NCBI GenBank assembly: GCA_946478845.1
Contig: CAMLDI010000006.1
Coordinates: 49,713-113,712, forward strand
Reading direction: 5' to 3'
Source of the DNA: an uncultured Paenibacillaceae bacterium
Lineage (GTDB): Bacteria > Bacillota > Bacilli > Aneurinibacillales > Aneurinibacillaceae
Length of the DNA stretch: 64,000 nucleotides
In this document: positions 25,765 through 60,960 of the stretch, piece by piece
Position numbering within the stretch: the stretch's first letter is position 1
Layout: each line of letters opens with the position of its first letter
Position numbers and translations under genes: made by a program
The notes under the pieces: model-generated
Seen by the model: the letters and a program-made list of their open reading frames with translations, nothing else
Databases searched by the model: none
What the model was told of the DNA's origin: nothing

Positions 25765-25839
25765 GGTTTCTCCCCCTTTTGTAACTGGCCTTTAACAACA
25801 TCCTAAGTTACATAAAGAATCTCATCCATCGTATATGCT

Positions 25840-25869
25840 AAAAATACCTTACATTTTTGTAAGGTATTT
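25840..25869 (-). terminator. Hairpin at the end of the Bce-type kinase gene
   Basis: An 11-bp perfect stem AAATACCTTAC / GTAAGGTATTT (25842-25869) with a short A/T loop and TTTTTA on the minus strand. It contains the last codons of the kinase gene. The same DNA contains a BceR-type palindrome, so it may serve as both terminator and operator. Confidence 0.65.
25849..25862. promoter_or_regulatory. Candidate BceR-type regulator box upstream of ABC genes
   Basis: TTACA-N4-TGTAA, a perfect match to the TNACA-N4-TGTAA consensus described for BceR-like regulators. It lies 85 bp upstream of the ATPase start and overlaps the stop codon of the kinase gene. The core promoter between it and the ATPase is not clear. 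Confidence 0.6.
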
Positions 25870-34680: not shown

Positions 34681-34697
34681 TATAACCCCTCCCTTTC

Positions 34698-35348
34698 TTA
34701 TTCCTTTTCTTGTTCCCGCAACCAGGAGATATAATCCTGCTCATTTTCCGGGATGATTTGATGCCCTGTTTCAAATACTTTGTAATGAACAGACCCGGCA
34801 CGGTTCTCGAAAAAGGCAGCATTGCTATTTCCAATCTCCAGAGGAAATTTCTCATCAAAGGATCCATGGGAGATATACATAGATACCTGATCCATAGGTT
34901 GAATTTTATACTCTTCTTTTACAAAATAAGGGATATATCCAGTACAAGCCACAGCTCCTTTTAACTCATTTCCCATAACAATTGGAAGGGTCATTGCCAG
35001 AATCGCTCCCATGCTAAATCCAAATACATATTTCCTTTCTGGATCAATGGGATATTTCTCTGTGGCATAAGCGATAAAATCGGTTAAATCCTGTACACAT
35101 TTATCGAATTCTTCCCGCACAGGAAATCCAATTTTAATAATATTAAAGAATGTATAACCATTGTTAAAAGGATACTCCCCACGCATGCCAATAAGAATAA
35201 ATTCATCTTTTACAGCATCTAACATCCCTAATATGTTTCTCTCATGACTCCCAATGCCATGCATGGCAAAAATAACAGGATATTTTTTATTGGGATCCAT
35301 GTTTTCTGGATAACGAATCTCGTAGAAAAACGGACTATTCATAAGCAT
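34698..35348 (-). CDS. Alpha/beta hydrolase, phospholipase/carboxylesterase type
   Basis: A 216-residue serine hydrolase: oxyanion strand FAMHGIGSHERN, nucleophile elbow GFSMGAI, acid SHGSFDEKF and catalytic His in FETGHQI. It is similar in type to MhqD/YodD esterases, which belong to quinone-responsive operons in B. subtilis. It starts with a GGGAG-ATG signal; a second ATG two codons later is possible. First gene of a unit with the LigB-type dioxygenase, 17 nt apart. Confidence 0.85.
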   Translation of the reverse strand: MLMNSPFFYEIRYPENMDPNKKYPVIFAMHGIGSHERNILGMLDAVKDEFILIGMRGEYPFNNGYTFFNIIKIGFPVREEFDKCVQDLTDFIAYATEKYPIDPERKYVFGFSMGAILAMTLPIVMGNELKGAVACTGYIPYFVKEEYKIQPMDQVSMYISHGSFDEKFPLEIGNSNAAFFENRAGSVHYKVFETGHQIIPENEQDYISWLREQEKE

Positions 35349-46051: not shown

Positions 46052-46107
46052 CCAAAAAATAGAAGAAACAACCTACCTAAAGATAAGGTGGATTGTTTCT
46101 TTCTATT
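46052..46107 (-). terminator. Terminator after the LysR gene
   Basis: On the minus strand GAAACAAtCCACCTTA / TAGGTaGGTTGTTTC forms a long stem with two mismatches, followed by TCTATTTTTTGG. It sits right after the LysR stop. Confidence 0.65.
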
Positions 46108-47005
46108 ATCTATTAATTTGTGAAAAAATCTTTTTTGAAGTATTTATCATTGTTTGCTTAATATTTAAGGGAATTGATTCATTTAAAAACAAGAATATTG
46201 AAGTCTGAGGAAGTGTTTTATTAAGGGAGATTTTCTTTAATGTTCCATTCTTAAGTTCTTCTTTAACGATGATTTCTTGTAAAAAAGCTACTCCTAATCC
46301 TTTCCTCACCATCATTTTAAGCCATCCTACATTACTAATTTCTACTTCCTTATATTCTTTCAATTGATTTTTCATAAGAAATTCACTAATTATTTTAGTT
46401 GTTATAAATTCCCGATTAAATACAATAATTCTTTCATTTTCTAAATCTTTCGGAGAAATTTTAGTTAATTTTGTAAGTGGATGATTAGGAGCACAAACAA
46501 GGATATTTTTTTCATCGGCAATTTTCGTCACCGAAAGATTCTCGTGAACTTCTTTAGGATAAATATCCGCAAATCCGATATCAATTGTCCCAGCACAAAT
46601 ATCTTCAATAATTTCCTCATTTGATTTAATATTTATTAAAAAATCCAATCCTGGAAAACTATCATATAAAATTTTTAAAATCTCAGGCATAATTTCTACA
46701 CCCATGTGATTTGTACAGGATATGGCAAACTTTTGGGGAATATTAGATTCTACTTTAAGAATATGAGGTACTTTTTCAATAAGTTGAAAGGCTTCATTTA
46801 GATAGGGGAAAATTTTTTTGCCAAAAGGAGTTAACACTGTTTTCTTCCCATTTTCTCTTTCAAATAACGTAAAATTAAGTTCTCTTTCTAGTTGTTGAAT
46901 TCTTACACTAATCGTAGGTTGACTAATATATAGAGATTCGGCTGCTGCTGAAAAACTTCCTTTTTCCGCTACAGTAAGGAAAGCTTCAATGTTTTTTAAT
47001 TCCAT
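46106..47005 (-). CDS. LysR family transcriptional regulator
   Basis: A 299-residue LysR regulator: N-terminal HTH MELKNIEAFLTVAEKGSFSAAAESLYISQPTISVRIQQLE, then a periplasmic-binding-like effector domain. An open frame extends 26 codons upstream, but the family start is ATG 47005. It is divergent from the TRAP transporter genes and probably controls them in response to the imported substrate. Two palindromes lie in the intergenic region. Confidence 0.9.
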   Translation of the reverse strand: MELKNIEAFLTVAEKGSFSAAAESLYISQPTISVRIQQLERELNFTLFERENGKKTVLTPFGKKIFPYLNEAFQLIEKVPHILKVESNIPQKFAISCTNHMGVEIMPEILKILYDSFPGLDFLINIKSNEEIIEDICAGTIDIGFADIYPKEVHENLSVTKIADEKNILVCAPNHPLTKLTKISPKDLENERIIVFNREFITTKIISEFLMKNQLKEYKEVEISNVGWLKMMVRKGLGVAFLQEIIVKEELKNGTLKKISLNKTLPQTSIFLFLNESIPLNIKQTMINTSKKIFSQINR

Positions 47006-47096
47006 CTCTTTTACTTTCCACCTTTCCCGTTTTATCCCCATTTTTATATTAATAATATTAATATATCCCATGAAAAGAATCAATTTGAATATTCAG

Positions 47097-47142
47097 TTAA
47101 CTAAAGTTAATGTATTTTTATAGAAAATTATTTTAATTTTCT
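47097..47142. promoter_or_regulatory. Two palindromes in the LysR-dctP intergenic region
   Basis: TTAACT-N2-AGTTAA (47097-47110) and AGAAAAT-N7-ATTTTCT (47122-47142). The second contains a T-N11-A core typical of LysR sites. They lie 57-102 bp upstream of dctP and are candidates for LysR binding; AT-rich DNA makes chance matches more likely. Confidence 0.4.
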
Positions 47143-47198
47143 GACAATATATTTTCTATTTTTTTACATTGCATTCAATAATGAAAAGGGGGAAAAAA

Positions 47199-48206
47199 AT
47201 GCTGAAAAAGTTAACTGTATTCTTGCTAATAATTGTAAGCATTTTCAATTTAGCCGCATGTAGTCAAAACACAATAGCTAAATATAAGGACACAAGACAA
47301 ATTACCTTTAAATTATCAACAATTGTACAACCAACCCATGTATGGACAAAAACTGCTGCGAAATTTAACAAAGAACTTCAAGCACGTTCAAATGGTCGAA
47401 TGAAAGTAGAAATTTACCCCTCAAGTCAACTTGGCCAAGAAAAAGACATGATTCAACAGATAGAGTCAGGTGCAGTAGATTTCGGCTTTATTACGAATGC
47501 CTATATCACAACTAGAGCTCCCTATTTTAACGCCTGGTTTCTCCCTTTCTTATTTGATAATACAGAAGAAGTAATAAAAATGAGAGATTCTAAAACTGCT
47601 AAAAAAATGTTAGCTCGTTTAAAAGAACAAAAAATTATTGGGATGGATTATTTATTCACAGGAAATCACCACTTTTTAATGGCAAAAAGTGTAATTGATT
47701 CACCTAATGATCTTAAAGGGGAAAAAATGCGTACCACAGGCGCTCCCCTTATTAATGAAACCTTCGAACAGTTTGGAGCAACTGTAACATCTATTCCCAT
47801 TAACGAAATTTATACAGCACTTCAAACAGGAATCGTTAGTGGAATTCATGCTAGTGTAGACGGAATCATGACGCAAAGGTTTCAGGAGGTATCTAAAGAT
47901 TTCTCTTTAGTTTCAGCTTTTGCCTTTCCGGCAATTGTTGTTGCTAGTGAAAAAACCATGCAAAACCTATCACCCGAAGACCGGAAAATTGTTTATGAAG
48001 CGATGAAAGCTGCCGCCGATTGGGGAATTCAGGAAGCCATGAGAGTGGATCATAGGGACTTAAATAATTTGAAAAAAACAGGACTAAACATTCATGAAGT
48101 AAAGAATAAAGACTTATTTAGAAAAGCAGTCGAGGACATATACAACAAGTACTCTTCAAAAGACCCTTTAGTGAAAGAATTTATTAAAGAAGTTCAAAAA
48201 AATTAG
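47199..48206 (+). CDS. dctP: TRAP transporter substrate-binding protein DctP
   Basis: A 335-residue binding protein of the DctP family with a lipoprotein signal (lipobox LAAC). Typical features: HVWTKTAAKFNKELQARSNGRMKVEIYPSSQLGQEKDMIQQI and the conserved Arg in EKMRTTGAPLINETFEQFGA, which binds a substrate carboxylate. ATG 47199 lies 6 nt after AAAAGGGGG. First of three genes of the TRAP importer; the genomic context suggests an aromatic or other organic acid as substrate. Confidence 0.92.
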   Translation: MLKKLTVFLLIIVSIFNLAACSQNTIAKYKDTRQITFKLSTIVQPTHVWTKTAAKFNKELQARSNGRMKVEIYPSSQLGQEKDMIQQIESGAVDFGFITNAYITTRAPYFNAWFLPFLFDNTEEVIKMRDSKTAKKMLARLKEQKIIGMDYLFTGNHHFLMAKSVIDSPNDLKGEKMRTTGAPLINETFEQFGATVTSIPINEIYTALQTGIVSGIHASVDGIMTQRFQEVSKDFSLVSAFAFPAIVVASEKTMQNLSPEDRKIVYEAMKAAADWGIQEAMRVDHRDLNNLKKTGLNIHEVKNKDLFRKAVEDIYNKYSSKDPLVKEFIKEVQKN

Positions 48207-48231
48207 AACGTGATAATGAGGAGGTAAGATT

Positions 48232-48789
48232 TTGAAGATTATTCGTCATTTAAGTGATGTTGTTTTTAAAATAGAAAAAGGGTTAGTGATTATTTTAGTT
48301 GCGCTTATGTTCATTTCACTAACAACAGGTGTTTTATCTCGATATCTCATTAAAATCCCCTTACATTGGGCTGATGAAACAGCTATTTTCAGCCTGGTCT
48401 GGTTAACTTTTATCGGGGGAAGTATGAGCCTAAAATACGGACATATCTCTGCTGTTACTATTTTTGTAAATTGCCTACCCAGCAAATTACGTAAAATATT
48501 ACGTTTTTTATCTACAGCCCTTGTTTTAGCCTTTGCGATTCTGATTTTTGTCTTAAGTGTAAATTGGATTACACAGCCTACAATTTCTTTTCAAAAATCT
48601 CCCATTATGGAAATTCCAATGATTATTCCATATTTGAGTGTACCAGTAGGACTTCTTTTCTTTAGCATCCATTCATTCAAGCTATTTGCTGATAACTTCC
48701 AAAAATCACATCAAACAATTGAATTATCTGAAACAATAGAATCAAAACAAGTAAAACAAACAAATACATTAGCAAATGAGGGGATATAA
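48232..48789 (+). CDS. dctQ: TRAP transporter small permease DctQ
   Basis: A 185-residue membrane protein with four helices and the DctQ signature: RYLIKIPLHWADETAIFSLVWLTFIGGSMSLKYGHIS. It is the small permease subunit of the TRAP importer. It starts at TTG behind GAGGAGG. The stop codon is directly followed by the dctM ATG. The C-terminal tail is hydrophilic and Glu/Thr-rich. Confidence 0.92.
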   Translation: MKIIRHLSDVVFKIEKGLVIILVALMFISLTTGVLSRYLIKIPLHWADETAIFSLVWLTFIGGSMSLKYGHISAVTIFVNCLPSKLRKILRFLSTALVLAFAILIFVLSVNWITQPTISFQKSPIMEIPMIIPYLSVPVGLLFFSIHSFKLFADNFQKSHQTIELSETIESKQVKQTNTLANEGI

Positions 48790-50064
48790 ATGGCCATCAC
48801 CATAAGCGCATTTGCTTTTTTGTTAGCAATTGGCGTTCCTATTCTTATTGTATTAGGAATTACCAGTATTGCCTATGTTTTAACGACGGGAAATTTAGAA
48901 GTACTTGAAACATTGCCTCTCCGGTTATATTCAGGAATTGAATCTCATGGATTATTAGCAATCCCATTATTCATGTTAGCTGGCGAATTAATGAATGTAG
49001 GAGGAATCACCAATCGATTAATCAAGTTTGCCCAAAATTTATTTGGACATTTTAAGGGCGGTTTAGCTTATGTTAACATTGTCGCTAATATGTTTTTAGC
49101 AGCAATATTAGGTTCTTCATTAGCACAAACTGCAATGATGAGCAGGGTTATGGTACCAGCCATGCAAAAAGTAGGTTATTCAAAAGAATTTAGTGCAGCT
49201 ACGACAGCTTCTGCAGCCATGCTTGGCCCAATTATCCCCCCAAGTATGCTATTTATTCTATATAGCGTGGGAGCAGGAACCTCGGTTAGTAAGATTTTTT
49301 TAGCGGGTATACTTCCAGGAATACTATTAACAATAGCTTTTATTTTAGTCGTCGCTTTTTTAGGATATAAAAAAACATTTCCTCGATCTGAAAAACAACC
49401 ATTAAAAGAAATTTTCACTTCTTTTGTTAAAGTCATCCCTTCTTTAATAATTCCTCTTGTTATTATTTTAGGAGTAACTTTGGGGATATTTACCGCCACA
49501 GAATCAGCTGCAATAGCTTGTGCACTTGCTTTATTAATTGGGGTCTATTTATATCGAGAATTAAAATGGACCGATATTCCTATGATTTTTACTAATACCG
49601 CAAAATCAACGGCAACAGTAACATTATTGATTGCAATGGCTAATTTATTTGGTCTTGTTCTCACTTTTGAACGTGTCCCCCACCTTCTTGCAACATGGAT
49701 GGGTTCAATATCAGATAACCCTCTGATTTTCTTATTAATCCTTAATATTTTCTTACTATTAGTTGGAACTATTATGGATGGAATAGCTGCTATTGTTATT
49801 CTAGTTCCTATACTTATTCCAGTTGCCAAATTATTTGAAATAGACCTTATTCATTTAGGAGTTATTATTTGCCTAAATACTGTAATTGGAAGTTTAACAC
49901 CACCTGTCGGTGCTGGATTGTTTGTTGCTTCAAGCGTGGGGGAAGTCAAACTGGAATCTTTAATAAAAGAAATATGGCCGTTCCTGGGAATATCCATTGT
50001 AGTTCTATTTATCTTGACTTATATCCCACAAATAGTTTTATGGATTCCACGTTTATTTTCTTAG
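48790..50064 (+). CDS. dctM: TRAP transporter large permease DctM
   Basis: A 424-residue polytopic protein of the DctM/ion-transporter superfamily with about 12 helices and typical motifs: IPLFMLAGELMNVGGITNRLIKFAQNLFGHFKGGLAYVNI, AASAAMLGPIIPPSMLFILY (with AATTAS just before) and GTIMDGIAAIVILVPI. It moves substrate with sodium. Starts immediately after dctQ with GAGGGG inside the dctQ end. Confidence 0.93.
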   Translation: MAITISAFAFLLAIGVPILIVLGITSIAYVLTTGNLEVLETLPLRLYSGIESHGLLAIPLFMLAGELMNVGGITNRLIKFAQNLFGHFKGGLAYVNIVANMFLAAILGSSLAQTAMMSRVMVPAMQKVGYSKEFSAATTASAAMLGPIIPPSMLFILYSVGAGTSVSKIFLAGILPGILLTIAFILVVAFLGYKKTFPRSEKQPLKEIFTSFVKVIPSLIIPLVIILGVTLGIFTATESAAIACALALLIGVYLYRELKWTDIPMIFTNTAKSTATVTLLIAMANLFGLVLTFERVPHLLATWMGSISDNPLIFLLILNIFLLLVGTIMDGIAAIVILVPILIPVAKLFEIDLIHLGVIICLNTVIGSLTPPVGAGLFVASSVGEVKLESLIKEIWPFLGISIVVLFILTYIPQIVLWIPRLFS

Positions 50065-50095
50065 CCTTCAATATAACTAGACCTGGTTAAACAAA

Positions 50096-50129
50096 GGCGT
50101 ATAAGAAGGACCAATCTTTCTTATACGCC
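50096..50129. repeat. 12-bp perfect hairpin between dctM and the permease gene
   Basis: GGCGTATAAGAA (50096-50107) and TTCTTATACGCC (50118-50129) over 10 nt, followed by A-rich sequence, not a U-run. An intercistronic mRNA stabiliser or processing site, or a weak terminator. Confidence 0.6.
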
Positions 50130-50162
50130 AAAATAATGTACATTGATAGAAGGAGGCAGAAA

Positions 50163-51443
50163 ATGAATACACAAGCCATTCTTGCTATTATTGTTTTTTT
50201 AGTTAGCTATGCCCTGATTATTTCCGAAAAAATACATAGAACAATAATCGCCATGGCAGCAGCTATTTTATTAATTGGATTAGGCGTCCTTAGCCAAAGT
50301 ACAGCTATTCACCATATCGATTTCAATACTTTAGGACTATTAATAGGAATGATGATTCTTGTTACCGTTACATCTGAAACTGGGGTTTTTCGTTATGTAG
50401 CAATCTGGTCCGCTAAAAAGGTAAAAGGTGAGCCTCAAAAAATACTATTCGTTTTTGCCTTTCTTACAGCATTTGCATCTGCCTTCTTAGACAATGTCAC
50501 CACCGTTCTTCTTATGGTGCCCATTACTTTTACTATTACAAGACAATTAAAAGTAAGTCCTTTTCCTTTTTTAATAGTAGAAATAATAGCTTCAAACATT
50601 GGCGGGTCTGCAACTTTAATTGGGGATCCACCAAATATAATGATTGGCAGTGCTGTGAAGGAATTAGCTTTTGGAGACTTCATAAATAACCTGGCGGTTA
50701 TTTGTGGAATCATACTTTTAATCACTATTCCATTATTAATATTCTTCTATCGTAAACAATTAAAAACCACAAAAGAATTACAAGAGAGTTTAATGGAGTT
50801 AAAGGAAAAAGAAGAAATAAAAGATTATAAACTATTAATAAAAAGTTTATCAATTTTAATTCTTACCATTGTCGGTTTATTTTTAGGTCATTTTCTTAAT
50901 ATGGACTCAGCAACCATCGCTTTAGCGGGAGCTTTTCTTTTACTTCTTATTTCGGGAGAACACCATTTAGAAAAAGCCCTTGTAAATATAGAATGGCAAA
51001 CGATTTTCTTCTTTATAGGATTATTCGTCCTGGTAGGGGGTCTGGTAGAAACGGAAGTTATCTCAACTCTAGCAAAACAAGCTATATGGTTTACAGAAGG
51101 GGACTTAACAAAAACCTCTCTGTTAATTTTATGGATGAGTGCAATTGCCTCTTCTTTTGTAGATAATATCCCTTTTGTGGCAACCATGATTCCATTAATA
51201 AAGGAAATGGGAACATTAGGTATGACGTACCTTGAACCTCTATGGTGGAGCCTGGCTTTAGGTGCATGTTTGGGGGGAAATGGAACTTTAATTGGAGCGA
51301 GTGCTAACTTAATTGTTGCTGGTTTAGCAGACAAGGAAGGTGAGCATATCTCATTCATTAAATACTTATTGGTAGGTTTTCCTGTTATGATTCTCTCCAT
51401 TACGATTGCTACTTTATATATTTATCTTCGTTATCTTCTGTAA
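50163..51443 (+). CDS. ArsB/NhaD-type (SLC13-like) anion/sodium permease
   Basis: A 426-residue permease with about 12 helices in the ArsB/NhaD/CitM superfamily. Conserved hallmark motifs are DNVTTVLLMVPIT, ASNIGGSATLIGDPPN and, in the second repeat, ACLGGNGTLIGASAN with SFVDNIPFVATMIP. Substrate could be sodium/proton or a carboxylate. ATG 50163 follows AAGGAGG. It is in the same direction as the TRAP genes, with a hairpin between them. Confidence 0.85.
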   Translation: MNTQAILAIIVFLVSYALIISEKIHRTIIAMAAAILLIGLGVLSQSTAIHHIDFNTLGLLIGMMILVTVTSETGVFRYVAIWSAKKVKGEPQKILFVFAFLTAFASAFLDNVTTVLLMVPITFTITRQLKVSPFPFLIVEIIASNIGGSATLIGDPPNIMIGSAVKELAFGDFINNLAVICGIILLITIPLLIFFYRKQLKTTKELQESLMELKEKEEIKDYKLLIKSLSILILTIVGLFLGHFLNMDSATIALAGAFLLLLISGEHHLEKALVNIEWQTIFFFIGLFVLVGGLVETEVISTLAKQAIWFTEGDLTKTSLLILWMSAIASSFVDNIPFVATMIPLIKEMGTLGMTYLEPLWWSLALGACLGGNGTLIGASANLIVAGLADKEGEHISFIKYLLVGFPVMILSITIATLYIYLRYLL

Positions 51444-51453
51444 TAATAAAGAA

Positions 51454-51478
51454 AGCTCCCGTTTAAAGGAGCTTTTTT
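51454..51478. terminator. Terminator between permease and zinc dehydrogenase
   Basis: AAGCTCC / GGAGCTT hairpin with six T residues on the plus strand. It ends the TRAP-permease transcript. Confidence 0.82.
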
Positions 51479-51490
51479 CATTTACATCAT

Positions 51491-52585
51491 TTAAAGCCAG
51501 GGGGAAACAGTAACTAACAACCGGGAAAGATCGGTTTCACCTGCAGCTGTCCTGAGGGCCAGGTCCGTTTCACTTAATTTAAAATTATGGGAATTCATAA
51601 TCGACAATGGGAATTTTCCTGAAGAAATGAAGTCTACTGCCATTTGCACAGATTGATAACTATGACCGCGAACCCCTTTAATCGTTAACATTTTATTATA
51701 TATAATATCTAAATCAATATCATTAAAGCGTTGATATTTTGCAGCACCTAGCAATACTGTCCCTCCTATTTTAGCTACTTCAAGTGATGCAACTACGGGT
51801 TCAGTTCCCCCACTGGTAACGTCGATGACAAGATCAGCCATTTTCCCCTTTGTAATTTCATCTACTTTATTAATTAGATTCTCATGACTAACATTAATTG
51901 TATAATCAGCACCTAATTCAAGACCAAGCTTTAATCGTTCAGAACTACTATTTCTTCCTGTCATAATAACTATTTCGGCCCCGGATGCTTTAGCCGCCAA
52001 AGCACAAGCAAGACCTTGTTGGCCTGGTCCTTGAATAACGACAACACTACCAGGACCAACATCTCCTATTATTCGCATCCATTCAAATCCATTTGCTATA
52101 GGTAAAGTTAAAGCCCCTTCTATTGCAGGAACATAAGATGGAAGTTTATGTAAGACTGCATTAGAATGTAAATACATATATTGGCTAAATCCCCCATACA
52201 AATAGGGTTTTGTTGCTATTGGAGTGGCGCCATATCTAATTCCATTTTCTCTTGGATTCGTATTTGAACATAAACGATATAACCCTTTACGGCATAGCTC
52301 ACATTGTCCGCAAGGGATATATTCCTCCATAACAACACGATCCCCCTCTTTCACTCCCCATCGTTTTGATGCTAATTCACCAATTTCATCAATATATCCA
52401 ACAACATGATGACCTAATATCATAGGCTCTTTTATCTTTTCATAATAAGAAACGTCTGTTCCACAAACACCCACAATTTCTACCTTTAATATTCCCGTAT
52501 CCTTTTCTACATTGGGTAATAAAATTTGTTTGATTTCTGTTTGCTTTATTTCTGTTGCTACGGCTACTAAAGCGGATTTGGCCAT
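51491..52585 (-). CDS. Zinc-dependent medium-chain alcohol dehydrogenase
   Basis: A 364-residue MDR dehydrogenase. Catalytic zinc: Cys in GVCGTDVSYYE and GHHVVG; structural zinc: four Cys in PCGQCELCRKGLYRLC. NAD(P) Rossmann segment has IQGPGQQGLACALAAKASGA. ATG 52585 follows AAGGAGG. It follows the Rieske oxygenase gene after a perfect 10-bp hairpin and may oxidise the dihydrodiol or an alcohol of the pathway. Substrate not identifiable. Confidence 0.88.
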   Translation of the reverse strand: MAKSALVAVATEIKQTEIKQILLPNVEKDTGILKVEIVGVCGTDVSYYEKIKEPMILGHHVVGYIDEIGELASKRWGVKEGDRVVMEEYIPCGQCELCRKGLYRLCSNTNPRENGIRYGATPIATKPYLYGGFSQYMYLHSNAVLHKLPSYVPAIEGALTLPIANGFEWMRIIGDVGPGSVVVIQGPGQQGLACALAAKASGAEIVIMTGRNSSSERLKLGLELGADYTINVSHENLINKVDEITKGKMADLVIDVTSGGTEPVVASLEVAKIGGTVLLGAAKYQRFNDIDLDIIYNKMLTIKGVRGHSYQSVQMAVDFISSGKFPLSIMNSHNFKLSETDLALRTAAGETDLSRLLVTVSPWL

Positions 52586-52606
52586 AAAAACCTCCTTATT
52601 CATAGG

Positions 52607-52632
52607 GAAACGGGAGTTTAATCTCCCGTTTC
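52607..52632. repeat. Perfect 10-bp hairpin between Rieske and dehydrogenase genes
   Basis: GAAACGGGAG / CTCCCGTTTC over 6 nt, with no U-run after it on the minus strand. Probable intercistronic mRNA structure that lets two genes differ in level. Confidence 0.6.
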
Positions 52633-52667
52633 GCAAAATATTTCTAATTTTCAGTTATTTTTAGCTA

Positions 52668-53948
52668 TTAAACAGCCTCGTAATCCTTTGCTCTTAATTT
52701 AATAGCTTCCTGTGCCCCTTCTGCAAAAGGAATTCCCTTCGGAAGTAATACTGAAGCAGAACGAATATGATGGGTAACAGGATCAATCGCAGGTAGCCTT
52801 ACCCCTTTTTCCAAAGTTTTCACTGCATTTAACAAGCATTGCCGCGCCTTAATAATCGCTGTATCACTAGTTCCTAATTTTTCTTTTGATCGATCCACAA
52901 TCGATCCCGCACTTACCTGAAGAGCATGGTCCTCCATCCCAATGCCAAAAATGCCAGCATAAGATTCGCCACTCCTCTGCATTTCCCGGTCTAACAAGAA
53001 TCCATTTTCCGGATTTGCCTGTGTAATAAAGGTACCTGGTATTAATAATGGATGAATTCCAGCTCCTGACTTCATCTGATCAATTTCATGTTCTTCAAGA
53101 TCCCGATCAGGAGTCCAACTCCATGTCCAAACCAAACAATTTTCATCATCTATAGGTACCCATGCATGTCCTCCTCGTGGAGCCCCACCAAAAGGAGGTA
53201 TCATTGTATAAAAAGGCATTAGAAATTGAGTAATTCTCCAATAATAATTTTCATCATCCGCTTCTCTTCTTGCGCCAATTAATAATCCATAATCAGTATC
53301 AACCACCTCAAATCGTGGTGCAGTATCTGTCGTTAAAAAGGTTGTACTTTTACTAGATTCTGAAACACCAATTCCACCAACTGATCCAGAATGAAGGAAG
53401 GAAACATGACTGGAATCAATACCTCCCTCTAAAGCCTGGAAGTAATTACACTGTTGTATTTTTTTAGAAATATATCTTTGACTATCTTTAACAAGCATCC
53501 ATTCTTGCTCTGGTAATTTTGGTTTGGATTCTGGCGGTCCCATGTAAGTCCAAATTACTCCACCACGTTCTTCACAGGGGTAAGATTTAATTTTCACACC
53601 ATTTATCAAATTACTTTCTGGTGGTTCAGATGGCAACTCAATACAGCGCCCTTCTGCATCAAATTTCCACCCGTGGTAGGGACATCTAATCCCACAATGT
53701 TCATTCCTCCCATAAAAAAGAGACACTCGACGGTGTGGACAATATTCGTCCATTAATGCAAGCTTACCATTGGTATCACGGAAAGCGATTAACTCTTCAC
53801 CTAAAAGCTTTACTCGAACCGGAGGACAATCAGGATGAGGGAGTTCCTTAGCTAAAAGCGCTGGAATCCAATACTGTCTTAGTACATTTCCCATTTTTGT
53901 ATCAGGGCCAATCTTCGTTAATAATTCATTGTTTTCTTTTGATAACAT
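52668..53948 (-). CDS. Rieske non-heme iron oxygenase, phthalate dioxygenase-like
   Basis: A 426-residue ring-hydroxylating oxygenase alpha subunit. Rieske cluster: C70/H72 in CPHRR and C89/H92 in CPYHGW. Mononuclear iron: D178, H181 and H186 in EGGIDSSHVSFLH. Length and layout fit the phthalate 4,5-dioxygenase/vanillate demethylase group, which use a separate reductase. ATG 53948 follows AGGGAGG with 8-nt spacing. No reductase gene is visible in the window. Divergent from the amidohydrolase operon. Confidence 0.9.
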   Translation of the reverse strand: MLSKENNELLTKIGPDTKMGNVLRQYWIPALLAKELPHPDCPPVRVKLLGEELIAFRDTNGKLALMDEYCPHRRVSLFYGRNEHCGIRCPYHGWKFDAEGRCIELPSEPPESNLINGVKIKSYPCEERGGVIWTYMGPPESKPKLPEQEWMLVKDSQRYISKKIQQCNYFQALEGGIDSSHVSFLHSGSVGGIGVSESSKSTTFLTTDTAPRFEVVDTDYGLLIGARREADDENYYWRITQFLMPFYTMIPPFGGAPRGGHAWVPIDDENCLVWTWSWTPDRDLEEHEIDQMKSGAGIHPLLIPGTFITQANPENGFLLDREMQRSGESYAGIFGIGMEDHALQVSAGSIVDRSKEKLGTSDTAIIKARQCLLNAVKTLEKGVRLPAIDPVTHHIRSASVLLPKGIPFAEGAQEAIKLRAKDYEAV

Positions 53949-54115
53949 TCTCAATTCCTCCCTGTATTTCATTTGTTTTCTACCCCAATTGTTATACAAA
54001 AAGTTGACACTTTCAAATCGAATGTTTTTATCAGCCCTATAGAAAATATTAATAGGGAACAAAAGTAATCCCCAGCCTATTAATTTTTTTTATACCTTTG
54101 ATTAAAAGAATCCAT

Positions 54116-54144
54116 TTGGCTAAAATACTGAGGTTGTTTATAAT
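54116..54144 (+). promoter_or_regulatory. Sigma-A promoter of the amidohydrolase-IclR operon
   Basis: TTGGCT (54116-54121) and TATAAT (54139-54144), spacer 17 bp, about 68 bp upstream of the amidohydrolase start. Confidence 0.65.
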
Positions 54145-54211
54145 AAATTAAAAATTTAGAATATTAGTTATTACTTCAATTTTGTAAGATTATCAAAAGG
54201 AGTGTGTTTAT

Positions 54212-55141
54212 ATGCATGATTTTCATACCCATTTTGTTCCTACTGATGTAATCGACTGGCTCAAAGATCATCAAAATGTAGTAAATGCTAAATGGATTAA
54301 AAAAGAGGAAAAAAAAGATAGTTTTTTAACCATAAATGAAAAATGGGGTTTTGAATTAAAACCAACTTTTATCAATATTGATCTTTATCTAAAAGAAAAA
54401 AATCTTGCTGGTATTAAATATTCCATGATTTCCCCCATTCCACAGCTTTTCTTATATGATTTCCCAACTGACATCTGCAAGGATTTATCAAGGGTTTATA
54501 ATCAATCCTTAGTTAAACTGGTAAAAGAATCTGCTGGAAAACTGTCCGCACTAGGAACAGTGCCATTATCAAACCCTATTCATGGGGCAATGGTTTTAAA
54601 CGAGGCAGTCAATCAAGGTCTAAGAGGTGCCATTATTGGACCAGGATTTTCAGAACATATGCTTTCAGATGAATTTTTTACACCCTTTTTTGAAGAAGCA
54701 AATCGACTTAAGGCTATTCTTTTTATCCATCCCTTATTAAATGAAGATCCCCGCCTAAAAAGAAGGAGAATGCCCAATTTAATTGGAGTGCCCTGGGAAA
54801 CCACCATTTGTGCAACAGATTTATTGCTAAGTGGATTTTTAGATAAATACCCTAATATTAAAATCCTACTTGCTCACGGGGGAGGATTCCTACCTTATCA
54901 AATTGGACGATTAGATAAAGGCTATGAACAATGGGGAATGGTCAATTTAAATACACCACCATCAGAATATTTAAACCGCTTTTGGTATGACACAGTCCTA
55001 TGGAATCAAGATAGTATCGATTTTCTCTTAAAAACAGTTGGAGAGGACAGGGTTGTACCAGGATCAGATTATCCATTTGATTTGTGCGTTTGGCCACCAA
55101 AACAAATAAGTAATCATGGTATAAACTCTTTGCTAGATTAA
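54212..55141 (+). CDS. ACMSD-type amidohydrolase / decarboxylase
   Basis: A 309-residue amidohydrolase_2 (TIM barrel) protein: HxH metal motif DFHTH at 3-7, LFIHP (third His), LLAHGGG (fourth) and GSDYPFD (Asp). This is the complete zinc site of ACMSD and of gamma-resorcylate/5-carboxyvanillate decarboxylases. It could decarboxylate an aromatic acid or an aminomuconate-type intermediate. It has its own promoter and leads two IclR genes. Confidence 0.85.
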   Translation: MHDFHTHFVPTDVIDWLKDHQNVVNAKWIKKEEKKDSFLTINEKWGFELKPTFINIDLYLKEKNLAGIKYSMISPIPQLFLYDFPTDICKDLSRVYNQSLVKLVKESAGKLSALGTVPLSNPIHGAMVLNEAVNQGLRGAIIGPGFSEHMLSDEFFTPFFEEANRLKAILFIHPLLNEDPRLKRRRMPNLIGVPWETTICATDLLLSGFLDKYPNIKILLAHGGGFLPYQIGRLDKGYEQWGMVNLNTPPSEYLNRFWYDTVLWNQDSIDFLLKTVGEDRVVPGSDYPFDLCVWPPKQISNHGINSLLD

Positions 55142-55160
55142 GTTTGTTGAGGTGAATGTT

Positions 55161-55895
55161 ATGAATTGCTTAATTGAAAATAAGCGTCTATTAAAATCAG
55201 TTCATAATGGATTAATTATTCTTAAATTATTCTCTAAAGAAAAACCAGTATGGGGAATAACAGACATATCTAGAAAAGCTGAGCTTCCCAAAAGCACTGT
55301 AAGCAGATTAATAAGCGACCTGGTAAAAGAAGGTTATTTGGAGAAATTGGGGGGGAAATACCAATTAGGCTTATCACCTCTTTATTTAACAGGTATTATC
55401 ACCTCACAAATGGAAATACTTCGAGAATCAGTAAAGCCATTAAAAACTCTATTAAAAAAAGTAAAAGAAACTTCTTACATTTCCATACTTGAAGGGGCTT
55501 TTGTCTTTTATTTGATTCAAATGGACGAATACCATTCGTACCAACTACTATCTGACAATAAAAGTCCTGCTTCCTGCACAAGCTCTGGCAAAGTCTTGTT
55601 AGCTTATGAATCTTTAGATAAAGCATCTAAATTTATTATGAAAGAACAATTACTAATGCAATTAACATTAATAAGAGAAACAGGGTATTGTATTGACGTA
55701 AATGAGGACGTTGTCAGTATCGCAGCACCAATTAGAGATTACACATGCAATGTTATTGCAGCAGTAAGTACAAAAAGTCCCAGACAAAAAATTGATGATC
55801 ATAAAATTCAATTGATTAAAGAAGAAATTATAAAAACTGCGAAGGAAATTTCTTTTCAATTAGGTTATCTGGAAACAATTCGTTATAGTAAATGA
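55161..55895 (+). CDS. IclR family transcriptional regulator 1
   Basis: A 244-residue IclR regulator: N-terminal winged helix (ITDISRKAELPKSTVSRLISDLVKEGYL) and effector domain ending GYCIDVNEDVVSIAAPIRDYTCNVIAAVS. ATG 55161 follows GAGGTGA. It lies 19 nt after the amidohydrolase gene and 15 nt before a second IclR gene. IclR regulators commonly control aromatic pathways such as protocatechuate genes. Confidence 0.9.
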   Translation: MNCLIENKRLLKSVHNGLIILKLFSKEKPVWGITDISRKAELPKSTVSRLISDLVKEGYLEKLGGKYQLGLSPLYLTGIITSQMEILRESVKPLKTLLKKVKETSYISILEGAFVFYLIQMDEYHSYQLLSDNKSPASCTSSGKVLLAYESLDKASKFIMKEQLLMQLTLIRETGYCIDVNEDVVSIAAPIRDYTCNVIAAVSTKSPRQKIDDHKIQLIKEEIIKTAKEISFQLGYLETIRYSK

Positions 55896-55910
55896 GGGAG
55901 GAGCTATACG

Positions 55911-56681
55911 ATGGGATTACATGCCGGGGAAAAAGTATCCTCCATGAGGAATGCTCTCAAACTACTAAAACTTTTTACAATAGAAGAACCTGTAATGTCA
56001 TTAACCGAATTAGCAAAGAAATTGGAAATTGGTGAAAGTGCTGTATATCGATTAATATCTACATTAATACATGATGAATTTATTACAAAGGACAATAATT
56101 CAAAAAAATTTAAACTAAAAACATCTTTAATCACAATGGGAAATACAATCATGTCCTGTAATAATCTATGCCATTTTACTCCCCCTATATTAGAGAAGCT
56201 TGTAAATGAAACAGGAGAAACAACTCATCTCTCTATTTTAAGAGAAAACAAAGTAGTCTATCTGCAAAAATTTGATTGTATAAACTTTGTACATCTGCCT
56301 ACTCATATTGGTAAGCAAAGTCCTTTACATTGTACAAGTTCAGGACAAATTTTTCTTGCTTTTCAATCAGAGCCTCATATTGAAAAAACTATTTTCAAAG
56401 GACTGACTGCCTTCACTTCTAATACAATTACTACCCGAGAAAAATTAGTAGATCGTATCAACAAGATTAAGAAACAAGGCTATGCTTTTACTATAGAAGA
56501 AATGTATCAGGGAATTTCCTCTATCGCAGCTCCTGTTATTTCTCCCTCTGGAGATGTTGTAGCGTCTATAAGTATTACCGGACCAATTACAAGAATAAAC
56601 CAACACACTGCATCTATGCTGTCAAAATTGGTAATAAAAGCATCTGACGAACTATCGAAGAAACTTAAATATAAATTTTAA
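55911..56681 (+). CDS. IclR family transcriptional regulator 2
   Basis: A 256-residue IclR regulator, similar to the neighbouring one in layout: MSLTELAKKLEIGESAVYRLISTLIHDEFI, then an effector domain with GYAFTIEEMYQGISSIAAPVISPSGDVVASISITGP. Strong GAGGGAGGAG ribosome binding site. The tandem arrangement suggests duplication with specialised effectors. Followed by a terminator shared with the opposing LigB-type gene. Confidence 0.9.
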   Translation: MGLHAGEKVSSMRNALKLLKLFTIEEPVMSLTELAKKLEIGESAVYRLISTLIHDEFITKDNNSKKFKLKTSLITMGNTIMSCNNLCHFTPPILEKLVNETGETTHLSILRENKVVYLQKFDCINFVHLPTHIGKQSPLHCTSSGQIFLAFQSEPHIEKTIFKGLTAFTSNTITTREKLVDRINKIKKQGYAFTIEEMYQGISSIAAPVISPSGDVVASISITGPITRINQHTASMLSKLVIKASDELSKKLKYKF

Positions 56682-56685
56682 GAGA

Positions 56686-56734
56686 AAAAAGCTGTTTGAA
56701 TGTACTAAAAAAACAATTCAAACAGCTTTTTTTT
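56686..56734. terminator. Bidirectional terminator after IclR 2
   Basis: AGCTGTTTGAAT (56690-56701) pairs with ATTCAAACAGCT (56716-56727), with A and T runs on both sides. Confidence 0.92.
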
Positions 56735-56740
56735 AGGCAA

Positions 56741-57589
56741 CTACATTACCCATTCTTTTTTAACATCCTCTTTTAACCGTGAAATTTTACTGTTTCCAAA
56801 GCTAATAACAGCATTCCAACTGCCAGAGGATTGACACTCCCCTAAATTTACAGGTTCATAACCATGTGTGATCATACTTAACAGCATAGCCAAATGGCGT
56901 CCACCTGACTCAACTTTTGCCATGCTAGCATACTGTGGGAGCATATCAAAGGCAGATTGTAGATCCTTATTCATAATATATTCAATAAATTGTTTATCAA
57001 GGGCATGTTCAGCAGGAGTTGGATTATGATGTCTTCCGCGAACCAAATTATGGGATAAGGCACCACTTGCCACGAAAACAACACGCTTCTCACTTTTTCG
57101 TAAAACTTCTGCGATTTCCTCGCCCCATCTATAGGTTTCCTCTAAACTGGCTGTTAATGCAACAGAAAAATTGATTACAGGGATAGTTTCATTTGGATTA
57201 AGATACCGTAAAGGCACTACAGTTCCATAATCCCATAAGTAATCAGGGTCATTTACTCCTATTACAGGTATCCCCACTTTTTGTCCTGCTTGTACTAATT
57301 CATCTGCTAATTCCCCGTCACCAGGATAAGAATAGGAAACACCCTTTATCAAATCAGGTGCTTCCATTGCTGTTAAATTCCCTTTATGAATAGAGGTACA
57401 ATCTACATAATGAAAAAAAGTGGATGGCCAATGACAAGAGACCAAAACAATAACATCAGGCTTTAAACCCTGGATTTCCTTTGCAACATCCTTCATTGCT
57501 GCTACAATATTTTGTTGATAATCCGGTGTTTGATCCTCATGGCATATCGTTGGAATATGAGGAACCAATAAACTTAACTCAATTGACAT
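56741..57589 (-). CDS. LigB-type class III extradiol ring-cleavage dioxygenase
   Basis: A 282-residue protein of the LigB superfamily: H11 in LVPHIPT, H53 in VSCHWPS, SGALSHNL with the second-sphere His, and GGRH near the C-terminus. No separate alpha (LigA) subunit is visible, as in the homoprotocatechuate 2,3-dioxygenase type. It likely opens the ring of a catechol formed by the Rieske oxygenase. ATG follows AGGGGG. A 12-bp palindrome CATAATATTATG (57630-57641) lies upstream. Confidence 0.87.
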   Translation of the reverse strand: MSIELSLLVPHIPTICHEDQTPDYQQNIVAAMKDVAKEIQGLKPDVIVLVSCHWPSTFFHYVDCTSIHKGNLTAMEAPDLIKGVSYSYPGDGELADELVQAGQKVGIPVIGVNDPDYLWDYGTVVPLRYLNPNETIPVINFSVALTASLEETYRWGEEIAEVLRKSEKRVVFVASGALSHNLVRGRHHNPTPAEHALDKQFIEYIMNKDLQSAFDMLPQYASMAKVESGGRHLAMLLSMITHGYEPVNLGECQSSGSWNAVISFGNSKISRLKEDVKKEWVM

Positions 57590-59538: not shown

Positions 59539-60315
59539 ATGTCAAATAATAAAGCATTAGAACAATACGATGTAAAAAAATATCGTACACCAGACGGTTA
59601 CACTTCCGACATTGCTGTTTTCACCATTGTTTCTGAACATGTTGCTGAATACAAACCCCCACACATGTCTTTGAAAATCATGTTGATTAAACGGTCAAAG
59701 TTTAACACAGAAGGAAATGTTAATATTGAGGCCGATAAATGGGCATTGCCAGGAGGATTTGTTCAAGATTATGAAACAGCTTTTGAAGCAGCTAAAAGAG
59801 AGTTAGAAGAAGAAACGGGTGTCAACGGCATTCATATTCAACATTTTGGAGTTTACGATCAACCTGGAAGAGATCCACGAGGCTGGATTATATCCAACGC
59901 ACATTATGCTATTGTACCCGACCGTTTTTTATCAAGCCGAAAAGCCAACGATGATGCTGCAGAAGTTGAATTATTCTCAACAGAAGAAGTGTTGAATCTG
60001 GATTTAGCTTTTGACCATAAGCAAATTATTGAAGACGCCATCAGTATTATAAAGAAAGATATCCTGCAAACGACGGTGGCTAAAAATTTCTTGCCAGAAC
60101 ACTTTACCTATTCGGAACTTCAGGCTGTTTTATTAACCGTTACAGATGATCCCGCCATTAAGAGCGATGCTGCCTTTTCGAGGAAAATCAAATCATTACC
60201 CTTTATAAAACCCGTTGAAGGCAAAAAAACACAACGCACATCAAAAACACCAACCCAGCTTTACCAATTTATAGATATAGACGTGTTAAAACCCATCTAT
60301 ACCGCCAGTTACTAA
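59539..60315 (+). CDS. nrtR: Nudix-family transcriptional regulator NrtR
   Basis: A 258-residue protein: N-terminal Nudix domain and C-terminal winged helix (FTYSELQAVLLTVTDDPAIKSDAAFSRKI). The Nudix box (about residues 74-96, G-x5-E-x7-RELEEETGV) is intact, so ADP-ribose hydrolysis is possible. NrtR represses NAD-biosynthesis genes and is released by ADP-ribose. It precedes pncA and pncB, and identical palindromes lie before nrtR and pncA. ATG follows GAGGAAAG. Confidence 0.9.
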   Translation: MSNNKALEQYDVKKYRTPDGYTSDIAVFTIVSEHVAEYKPPHMSLKIMLIKRSKFNTEGNVNIEADKWALPGGFVQDYETAFEAAKRELEEETGVNGIHIQHFGVYDQPGRDPRGWIISNAHYAIVPDRFLSSRKANDDAAEVELFSTEEVLNLDLAFDHKQIIEDAISIIKKDILQTTVAKNFLPEHFTYSELQAVLLTVTDDPAIKSDAAFSRKIKSLPFIKPVEGKKTQRTSKTPTQLYQFIDIDVLKPIYTASY

Positions 60316-60334
60316 ATTTTTTTAAGGTTAACTA

Positions 60335-60356
60335 TTAACAATATGTTTATTGTTAA
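60335..60356. promoter_or_regulatory. NrtR operator upstream of pncA
   Basis: TTAACAA-N8-TTGTTAA, identical in arms and spacing to the element before nrtR (59478-59499). It is 36 bp upstream of the pncA start. Confidence 0.72.
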
Positions 60357-60391
60357 TTATAAATTAAGTTACCTTTTAGGAGGAATATCAC

Positions 60392-60940
60392 ATGAAAAAA
60401 GCGCTAATCAATATCGATTATACCAATGATTTTGTCGCACCAAAGGGTGCATTGACCTGCGGTGCACCTGCCCAGGCCATTGAAAAATCCATAACGGCAA
60501 TCACCCGACAATTTATTGAAACGGGGGATTATGTGGTTTTCGCTATCGATCAACACAACGAGAATGATTTGCTTCATCCTGAGGCAAAGCTCTTCCCCCC
60601 TCACAACATTACAGGAACTGCTGGACGTAATTTGTACGGTACATTAAATGAAGTTTACCTGCAAAACAAAGAGAAGGAAAACCTATATTGGATGGACAAA
60701 ACAAGATATTCTGCCTTCGCCGGAACAGATTTAGAAATCAAATTACGGGAAAGAGGCATTAACGAGATTCATCTTGTGGGGTGTGCAACGGATATTTGTG
60801 TCTTTCAAACAGCAGTTGATGCTTATAACAAAGGATTTCACATTGTGATACACAAAGAAGCAGTCGCAAGCTTTAATCCCCTGGGTCACCAATGGGCTCT
60901 AGACCAATTCAAAAACACCTTTGGCGCTAAAATTCTTTAA
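60392..60940 (+). CDS. pncA: Nicotinamidase
   Basis: A 182-residue isochorismatase-fold amidase hydrolysing nicotinamide to nicotinate. Catalytic triad: Asp in NIDYTNDF, Lys in WMDKTRYSAF and Cys in VGCATDICV; metal ligands in IDQHNEND. Strong TAGGAGGA ribosome binding site. Paired with pncB 20 nt downstream for NAD salvage and under predicted NrtR control. Confidence 0.94.
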   Translation: MKKALINIDYTNDFVAPKGALTCGAPAQAIEKSITAITRQFIETGDYVVFAIDQHNENDLLHPEAKLFPPHNITGTAGRNLYGTLNEVYLQNKEKENLYWMDKTRYSAFAGTDLEIKLRERGINEIHLVGCATDICVFQTAVDAYNKGFHIVIHKEAVASFNPLGHQWALDQFKNTFGAKIL

Positions 60941-60960
60941 TCATTTGGGAGGGATTTCAC

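What the first reader, a model, noticed from the sequence alone, without database searches (positions are those of the whole stretch)
46106..57589. Aromatic-acid catabolic island with TRAP import, Rieske oxygenase, LigB and ACMSD-type enzymes but no visible reductase
A run of genes that fits import and degradation of an aromatic acid: LysR and TRAP transporter, ArsB/NhaD-type permease, Rieske oxygenase and zinc dehydrogenase, ACMSD-type amidohydrolase with two IclR genes, and a single-subunit LigB-type dioxygenase. The set does not match any named operon I know: phthalate-type Rieske enzymes need a reductase, and 4,5-cleavage routes need LigC/LigI/LigJ-type steps, none of which are here. The enzyme order and substrate are open. 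Seen: motifs and gene order. Inferred: shared pathway.
Basis: partly seen in the sequence, partly recalled or inferred. Interest (0 to 1): 0.72.

Follow-up and report, generated by a model that had tools for sequence, protein, structure and literature searches.

The report
Bacillus aromatic-acid to protocatechuate gene island
A block of eleven bacterial genes that probably imports a benzoate-type dicarboxylic acid, converts it to protocatechuate and opens the ring by a known but uncommon route; what is unusual is the pairing of enzymes and the missing electron-supplying partner.

Summary
The eleven genes are real. The ring-opening half is recognisable: in 20 Bacillales loci picked by a LigB match, the ACMSD-like gene lies nearby in 19 and the lower genes of protocatechuate (PCA) 2,3-cleavage (pra) in 18-19. 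So LigB is most likely PraA and the amidohydrolase PraH; LigC/I/J genes are not expected. The window holds only these upper steps. The Rieske/zinc-MDR pair recurs 14-20 kb from a pra operon in three related genomes, with LysR in two and the TRAP genes complete in one. The Rieske is 47% identical to isophthalate dioxygenase and shares 7 of 10 named pocket residues. Best reading: an isophthalate-like acid goes to PCA, then to 2-hydroxymuconate semialdehyde. It is not an iph operon, which has an SDR and a reductase. The missing reductase is not peculiar to this window: in three relatives with the same oxygenase, two domain searches showed no protein of that reductase's make-up, and a ferredoxin-NADP reductase 2 lies in the island. 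Substrate, reactions and electron partner are untested.

The parts
46106..47005 (-). LysR regulator (ATG start; longest frame to 47083)
   Evidence: PF03466 107.6 bits, PF00126 75 bits; 69% and 71% identical LysR near the same Rieske/MDR pair in L138 and L139
47169..48206 (+). TRAP solute-binding protein DctP
   Evidence: PF03480 217 bits; 73% homologue in L138; no solved TRAP receptor close enough to name the ligand (best 122 bits)
48232..48789 (+). TRAP small permease DctQ
   Evidence: PF04290 95 bits; 56% in L138
48790..50064 (+). TRAP large permease DctM
   Evidence: PF06808 397 bits; 80% in L138
50136..51443 (+). CitMHS/ArsB-superfamily permease, cargo unknown
   Evidence: PF03600 327.6 bits; no homologue marked in L137-L139
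51491..52585 (-). Zinc medium-chain dehydrogenase (MDR); proposed cis-dihydrodiol dehydrogenase
   Evidence: PF08240 and PF00107; 77-80% homologue directly after the Rieske in L137-L139, 49-50% in L140-L143, 42-48% in 16 proteobacterial loci; none beside the 70% Rieske of L001
52668..53948 (-). Rieske oxygenase, single-subunit phthalate/isophthalate type; proposed ring-dihydroxylating enzyme
   Evidence: PF00355 69.9 bits, PF19301 135.6 bits; 47% to isophthalate dioxygenase 9INA; 7 of 10 named IPDO pocket positions identical
54212..55141 (+). ACMSD-like amidohydrolase; [quoted passage not shown]
   Evidence: PF04909; best solved relatives are ACMS decarboxylases, 124 bits; homologue in 19 of 20 loci picked by LigB
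55152..55895 (+). IclR regulator 1
   Evidence: PF01614, PF09339; 51% homologue next to PobA in the pra island of G001 (L193)
55911..56681 (+). IclR regulator 2
   Evidence: PF01614 150 bits; 55% homologue in the same tandem pair in L193
56741..57589 (-). LigB-type extradiol dioxygenase; proposed PraA, protocatechuate 2,3-dioxygenase
   Evidence: PF02900 130.6 bits; TIGR02298 126.6 bits, below the 315.95 cut-off for homoprotocatechuate dioxygenase; homologues (one per locus) lie beside the lower pra-type genes in 19 of 20 loci

Best explanation
The island imports an aromatic (di)carboxylate through the TRAP transporter. The Rieske oxygenase makes a cis-dihydrodiol and the zinc MDR oxidises it, with loss of CO2 when the diol carbon carries a carboxylate, giving protocatechuate. 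LigB (PraA) opens protocatechuate at the 2,3 bond to 5-carboxy-2-hydroxymuconate-6-semialdehyde; the amidohydrolase (PraH) decarboxylates this to 2-hydroxymuconate-6-semialdehyde, which enters a catechol-type lower pathway encoded elsewhere in the genome. Isophthalate is the single most likely substrate (about 0.4). Electrons for the Rieske enzyme probably come from a general ferredoxin-NADP reductase 2 plus a ferredoxin, not from a dedicated reductase. Shown: gene content, families, recurrent neighbourhoods, pocket residues, and that domain searches find no such reductase in three relatives. Inferred: every reaction, the substrate, the electron partner, the existence of the lower pathway in this genome.
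For: LigB homologues: 24 genomes in two searches; 20 of these 24 loci were fetched. ACMSD-like gene in 19 of 20, two hydratase/decarboxylase genes 19, 4-hydroxy-2-oxovalerate aldolase 19, acylating acetaldehyde dehydrogenase 19, hydroxymuconic-semialdehyde dehydrogenase family 18, IclR 18, 4-hydroxybenzoate 3-monooxygenase 8 (names from one representative of each). The last enzyme makes protocatechuate, which points to the LigB substrate. The tandem IclR pair has 51% and 55% homologues in the pra island of G001. The Rieske/MDR pair (79-80%, 77-80%) recurs 13.6-19.6 kb from LigB in G251, G334 and G314, with LysR in two of them and DctPQM complete in one. The 4 of 397 order-level genomes with a close Rieske are all among the 16 of 397 with LigB. 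Pocket: IPDO R234 and H257, needed for activity (PMC12445078, sections 6 and 8 read), and G172, V178, I246, F249 and I294 are identical; F249 is F in 5 of 5 of the window clade and 7 of 7 iph-type rows, but R in 12 of 12 rows with a BenC-like reductase nearby. No PhtC-type decarboxylase in the window, as for isophthalate, where dehydrogenation and decarboxylation are one step (PMC13040137, section 12 read).
Against: The lower pathway is absent from the window and the genome is not held. Three pocket positions differ (T175S, L198T, F333I; L198 lies in a poorly aligned stretch), and R234, H257 and V178 are shared far beyond isophthalate enzymes. The dehydrogenase of the iph locus is an SDR, not an MDR, and I know of no MDR shown to be a cis-dihydrodiol dehydrogenase. 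The 70% Rieske of H. ligniniphilum has no MDR beside it. The three related genomes are close kin, so their linkage counts about once; between the two halves they carry a different Rieske, a PhtC-type decarboxylase and, in L138, unrelated-looking genes. Ferredoxin-NADP reductase 2 was found in 6 of 6 genomes searched, including G173, which had no close Rieske, so its presence as such proves nothing.
Confidence: 0.64

Rival explanations
1. The Rieske enzyme is an O-demethylase (vanillate- or methoxybenzoate-type) that yields protocatechuate plus formaldehyde, and the MDR handles the aldehyde.
For: The C-terminal domain family is named after LigXa (PF19301), recalled as an O-demethylase; the product would also be protocatechuate.
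Against: Best solved relatives are isophthalate and phthalate dioxygenases (444, 342 and 282 bits); dicamba O-demethylase scores 54 bits there. The carboxylate-anchoring R234 and H257 are both kept. The MDR scores 64 bits with glutathione-independent formaldehyde dehydrogenase against a cut-off of 637. In L141/L142 a 49-50% MDR and a 59-60% Rieske lie with an extradiol dioxygenase and two hydratase/decarboxylase genes.
Confidence: 0.12
2. The substrate is ortho-phthalate (4,5- or 3,4-dihydroxylation).
For: Many of the 120 listed relatives are named phthalate 4,5-dioxygenase by a source; three related islands carry a PhtC-type 3,4-dihydroxyphthalate decarboxylase (300 bits, cut-off 200, tested for L137; homologues in L138, L139) nearby.
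Against: No PhtC hit in the window; in the relatives PhtC sits with a different Rieske (30-32% identical) and a Gfo/Idh/MocA dehydrogenase; position 249 is F as in IPDO, which does not act on phthalate until V178 and F249 are changed (PMC12445078).
Confidence: 0.12
3. The two halves are chance neighbours serving different substrates.
For: They also occur apart: in G164 about 133 kb apart. Of the 16 LigB-positive genomes only five are known to have a close Rieske (four, G001); the other eleven are not among the matches, but only G058 and G173 are shown there as searched.
Against: Linked within 20 kb in three relatives and abutting in the window; one AT-rich block.
Confidence: 0.1
4. LigB is a homoprotocatechuate 2,3-dioxygenase (HpaD).
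For: Best NCBIfam model and best solved relative are HpaD-type; a source names many relatives so.
Against: 126.6 bits against a cut-off of 315.95; partners in the relatives are 4-hydroxybenzoate 3-monooxygenase (8 of 20 loci) and HMS-type lower genes.
Confidence: 0.05

Closest known systems
Protocatechuate 2,3-cleavage pathway (pra) of Paenibacillus sp. JJ-1b
   Same: LigB-type dioxygenase gene and ACMSD-like decarboxylase gene, with IclR, homologous to those beside the lower pra-type genes in Bacillales; the JJ-1b gene set praRABEGFDCHI was seen in passages of PMC12455638, PraH as ACMSD-related in passages of PMC6362003
   Different: Lower-pathway genes and PobA/PraI are missing from the window; a Rieske/MDR/TRAP module is attached. 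JJ-1b sequences were not compared directly.
Isophthalate (iph) operon of Comamonas
   Same: Single-subunit oxygenase of the IPDO type, 47% identical, 7 of 10 named pocket residues
Rieske-MDR pairs of Proteobacteria (for example L074, Limnohabitans)
   Same: Rieske 49-54% and MDR 42-48%, adjacent, in 16 loci; an IclR gene follows in 5 of them
   Different: No LigB homologue was marked in any of these loci; I know of no characterised member (no literature search was made for this pair)
opa o-phthalate pathway of Pseudomonas sp. PTH10
   Same: Works alike: Rieske, diol dehydrogenase, extradiol dioxygenase, ACMSD-type decarboxylase to HMS (PMC6362003 passages)
   Different: Goes through 2,3-dihydroxybenzoate; multi-component Rieske with own ferredoxin and ferredoxin reductase

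Membership tests
Protocatechuate 2,3-cleavage (pra) operon | LigB-type dioxygenase of the pra-operon family | tested here: met
   56-68% homologues beside lower pra-type genes in 19 of 20 loci; not compared with JJ-1b PraA itself
Protocatechuate 2,3-cleavage (pra) operon | ACMSD-like PraH-type decarboxylase gene beside it | tested here: met
   19 of 20 loci and the window
Protocatechuate 2,3-cleavage (pra) operon | HMS dehydrogenase, hydratase/decarboxylases, aldolase, acetaldehyde dehydrogenase in the locus | tested here: not met
   No tblastn hit in the 64 kb; so only the upper steps, not a complete pra operon
Protocatechuate 2,3-cleavage (pra) operon | 4-oxalocrotonate tautomerase (PraC) gene | not tested
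   Too short for the open-frame limits used (90 residues and more)
Protocatechuate 2,3-cleavage (pra) operon | 2,3-cleavage of protocatechuate | not testable with these tools
   Needs enzyme assay
Isophthalate (iph) operon | IPDO-type oxygenase | tested here: inconclusive
   47% identity, 7 of 10 pocket residues, outside the iph clade
Isophthalate (iph) operon | IphB-type SDR dehydrogenase | tested here: not met
   No SDR hit in the window; zinc MDR instead
Isophthalate (iph) operon | IphD-type reductase | tested here: not met
   Only a 53-residue stretch at E 0.047 in the window
Phthalate 3,4 pathway | PhtC 3,4-dihydroxyphthalate decarboxylase | tested here: not met
   No hit in the window
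Phthalate 4,5 pathway | 4,5-dihydroxyphthalate decarboxylase | tested here: inconclusive
   Only a putative relative (L141, 322 aa; function recalled, no NCBIfam hit) was used as query; 50-residue stretch at E 0.017
5,5'-dehydrodivanillate (LigX/Y/Z/W) route | Amidohydrolase of LigY or LigW type | tested here: not met
   124 bits to ACMSD against 64 (5-carboxyvanillate decarboxylase) and 57 (LigY)

The most novel reading that the evidence does not exclude
A Gram-positive isophthalate-type route in which a zinc MDR replaces the SDR IphB, the product goes into protocatechuate 2,3-cleavage, and a phthalate-family Rieske oxygenase works without any dedicated flavin/2Fe-2S reductase, fed by a thioredoxin-reductase-like ferredoxin-NADP reductase 2 and a ferredoxin not of the plant type.
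Probability: 0.25. Interest if true: 0.6.

Novelty: new variant of a known kind. Interest (0 to 1): 0.42.

Why it matters
A 2026 review says that, to its authors' knowledge, aerobic isophthalate genes have been validated only in two Comamonas strains (PMC13040137, section 12 read). A Bacillales route would extend this to spore-formers, and would add a second kind of dihydrodiol dehydrogenase and a different electron supply for the Rieske oxygenase. It also suggests a function (PraA, PraH) for genes that sources name 3,4-dihydroxyphenylacetate 2,3-dioxygenase and aminocarboxymuconate-semialdehyde decarboxylase, or only by family, in many Bacillaceae.

Tried and rejected
Rejected: LigB as a 4,5-cleaving enzyme (operon partners are HMS-type lower genes). 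Rejected: the amidohydrolase as gamma-resorcylate, 5-carboxyvanillate or LigY-type enzyme. Rejected: Rieske-MDR as a plain iph operon; I had expected IphB to be the MDR, but the locus with a 98% IPDO shows an SDR. Led nowhere: searches of two small families for the window-type Rieske, 0 of 17 and 0 of 4 genomes; TRAP receptor ligand by solved structures. Literature, listings only: Bacillus ligniniphilus plus Rieske, 3 papers; Domibacillus plus phthalate, one paper on tomato rhizosphere; 'Rieske oxygenase' plus YumC, 0 papers; isophthalate plus iphB plus dehydrogenase, 0 papers; two isophthalate plus Bacillus searches, 3 and 5 papers, of which two (PMC13040137, PMC6362003) were then read in part. 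These searches cover open-licence PubMed Central only, so I claim no absence from print. The two original papers on pra and iph genes are not held; their content is recalled or taken from citing papers. Structure prediction was not used.
Full report
What is there. The eleven genes of the finding exist as described. From left to right: LysR (-), TRAP DctP-DctQ-DctM (+), a CitMHS/ArsB-superfamily permease (+), zinc medium-chain dehydrogenase MDR (-) preceded by the Rieske oxygenase (-), an ACMSD-like amidohydrolase followed by two IclR genes (+), and LigB (-). ATG starts that match the relatives shorten three frames. The block has 34.5% GC against 39.2% for the rest of the window, and ranks 5th lowest of 211 overlapping stretches of that length, which fits an acquired island but does not prove it.

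The ring-cleavage half. LigB was sought in 41 genomes of the family of Halalkalibacterium ligniniphilum (9 matches, E<=1e-40) and in 397 genomes of its order (16 matches, E<=1e-90); G001 is in both, so 24 in all. I fetched 20 of these 24 loci; G018, G027, G036 and G039 were left out for the limit of 20 stretches per call. All 20 were picked by their LigB match. Clustering of open frames of 90 residues and more gave: ACMSD-like gene 19 of 20 (the exception, L128, runs off its contig); a pair of hydratase/decarboxylase genes 19; an aldolase 19; an acetaldehyde dehydrogenase 19; a second aldehyde dehydrogenase family 18; IclR 18; PobA-like 8. NCBIfam, asked with one representative of each, names 4-hydroxy-2-oxovalerate aldolase and acetylating acetaldehyde dehydrogenase over cut-off; 2-hydroxymuconic semialdehyde dehydrogenase (681 bits, cut-off 693) and 2-oxo-3-hexenedioate decarboxylase (300 bits, cut-off 351) as best models below cut-off; 4-hydroxybenzoate 3-monooxygenase over a subfamily cut-off. 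The short tautomerase gene (praC) was not looked for. This is otherwise the gene set of protocatechuate 2,3-cleavage: passages of PMC12455638 give the operon of Paenibacillus sp. JJ-1b as praRABEGFDCHI, and passages of PMC10765951 give the order PraH, B, C, D, E after the dioxygenase. [quoted passage not shown] I could not compare with the JJ-1b proteins themselves. The one locus without the lower genes, L116, has LigB, IclR, the ACMSD-like gene and a TRAP system, much like the window. The tandem IclR pair of the window has 51% and 55% homologues, also in tandem, next to PobA in the pra island of G001.

What is missing. In the 64 kb, tblastn at E<=0.1 found none of the lower pra enzymes, PobA, PhtC, the Gfo/Idh dehydrogenase, the SDR, a BenC-like reductase, IphD or ferredoxin-NADP reductase 2; the stretches below interest were 30, 53 and 50 residues at E 0.026, 0.047 and 0.017. 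The rest of the genome is not held. So the window alone holds the two upper steps only.

The Rieske/MDR half. Relatives at 73-81% identity are named from Niallia, Fictibacillus and Alicyclobacillus. In 397 genomes of the order, 4 have a match at E<=1e-150: G334, G314, G251 (79-80%) and G164 (63%). All four are among the 16 LigB-positive genomes; the two samples were drawn around different centres and I did not check that they are identical. G334, G314 and G251 are close kin, so this is not four independent events. In these three the Rieske lies 15.6, 19.6 and 13.6 kb from LigB on the same contig, followed by an MDR of 77-80% identity. L138 (G314) also has DctM 80%, DctQ 56%, DctP 73% and LysR 69%; L139 (G251) has LysR 71% but another permease and no DctPQM of this kind; L137 (G334) ends in a DctM-like piece, by eye. 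Between the two halves lie a different Rieske (30-32% to the window's), a PhtC-type decarboxylase (300 bits, cut-off 200, L137), a Gfo/Idh/MocA dehydrogenase and a flavoprotein, and in L138 also transporter genes of no evident relation. In G164 the two halves are about 133 kb apart; in G001 a 46% Rieske with a 63% MDR lies about 48 kb from LigB, while its 70% Rieske (L001) has no MDR beside it.

What the Rieske does. Its best solved relative is isophthalate dioxygenase of Comamonas testosteroni KF1 (9INA, 444 bits; then two phthalate dioxygenases, 342 and 282 bits; identity of 9INA from PMC12445078, passages and sections 6 and 8). Ten pocket positions named in that paper map without conflict: G172, V178, R234, I246, F249, H257 and I294 are identical; T175 is S, L198 is T, F333 is I (the same on a 103-row alignment). 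Over groups, F249 is F in the window, 3 of 3 of the 79-80% relatives, 1 of 1 of the 70% relative and 7 of 7 iph-type rows (two of these near-identical); it is Y in 3 and F in 1 of the four 60% relatives, Y in 11 and R in 5 of 16 proteobacterial MDR neighbours, and R in 12 of 12 rows with a BenC-like reductase nearby. In the paper, changing V178 and F249 together opened IPDO to phthalate. R234, H257 and V178 are widely shared, so they say only that a benzoate-like acid is bound. In the tree (103 rows, quick method, long-branch warnings for the phthalate references) the window groups with L137-L139 (98*) and L001 (99*), then with the four 60% Bacillales enzymes (88); the iph clade is separate (100*). 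So isophthalate is a lead from the pocket, not from clade membership.

What the MDR does. An MDR within 1 kb of the Rieske was scored in 25 of 103 rows, the window included. In L141/L142 the 59-60% Rieske and its MDR lie with two hydratase/decarboxylases, an extradiol dioxygenase of the VOC type and a 322-residue protein that I take, from memory, for a relative of 4,5-dihydroxyphthalate decarboxylase; NCBIfam had no hit and Pfam only a sub-threshold one. This company suggests dihydroxylation, dehydrogenation, then cleavage, with the MDR as dihydrodiol dehydrogenase. So the window is not an iph operon. For isophthalate and terephthalate one dehydrogenase both oxidises and decarboxylates, and TphB needs zinc (PMC13040137 section 12); the absence of a PhtC-type decarboxylase in the window agrees with that type of substrate.

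The missing reductase. In five relatives I searched the 2Fe-2S ferredoxin domain (PF00111) and a flavin domain of this reductase class (PF00970). G334, G314 and G251 each have one PF00970 protein, 399-408 residues, which by eye is a flavohaemoprotein. Their PF00111 hits (1, 4 and 6) lie in frames of 118-214 or 991-1007 residues, none of the 300-370 expected for a one-chain reductase; the nine of G164 lie in frames of 94-201. G334's single one is a 142-residue protein beside what looks by eye like an encapsulin gene. G001, by contrast, does have a BenC-like reductase of 344 residues; the PF00970 hit of G164 and the second of G001 were not read. The assemblies' completeness is not told. The flavoprotein in the islands of G334, G314 and G251 is a ferredoxin-NADP reductase 2 (L137 to 3LZW, 522 bits; 89-91% in the other two); further copies lie in aromatic islands of G251 and G001. 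Such reductases were found in 6 of 6 genomes searched, including G173 without a close Rieske, so this is a candidate partner, not a proof.

Verdict. The island is real and most of it is now assignable. What stays open and mildly surprising is a phthalate-family Rieske oxygenase with a zinc MDR and no dedicated reductase, feeding this route in Bacillales.

Noticed in passing
L145:9385-9657, L137 about 9608, L138 about 12829, L139 about 11773, L141 about 12511, L142 about 8155: A stand-alone piece of about 70-90 residues with the NADPH-binding domain of ketol-acid reductoisomerase (PF07991, 48.2 bits, cut-off 20.6, tested for L145) lies beside the Rieske or MDR gene in several Bacillales; in L119 and L144 a homologue lies away from it. 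No hit in the window. Function unknown.
   Followed up: partly
window 33910-35348: A second LigB-fold (DODA/YgiD-like, by eye) gene next to an esterase-like gene, away from the island.
   Followed up: no
window 59539-62421: Nudix protein, nicotinamidase-like protein and nicotinamide phosphoribosyltransferase (NadV-like) in a row: an NAD-salvage cluster, by eye; a 76% NadV homologue is in L195.
   Followed up: no
L137-L139 and L194: In Domibacillus-like genomes, a second Rieske (30-32% to the window's) with a PhtC-type decarboxylase, Gfo/Idh dehydrogenase and ferredoxin-NADP reductase 2 forms what looks like an o-phthalate cluster next to pra.
   Followed up: partly
L121, L144, L192, L193 (contig C87 of G001, Halalkalibacterium ligniniphilum): Within about 50 kb of one contig: a Rieske-MDR pair, ferredoxin-NADP reductase 2, what looks by eye like a two-subunit Rieske, a TRAP system, PobA, two IclR and the pra-type operon.
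   Followed up: partly
L141 and L142: Rieske-MDR with LysR, a TRAP-like transporter (by eye), two hydratase/decarboxylases, a VOC-type extradiol dioxygenase and a 322-residue binding-protein-like gene: a second, separate aromatic cluster.
   Followed up: partly
window 23106-27544: Response regulator, sensor kinase, ABC ATPase and large permease in a row, resembling a peptide-antibiotic sensing and export module (by eye).
   Followed up: no
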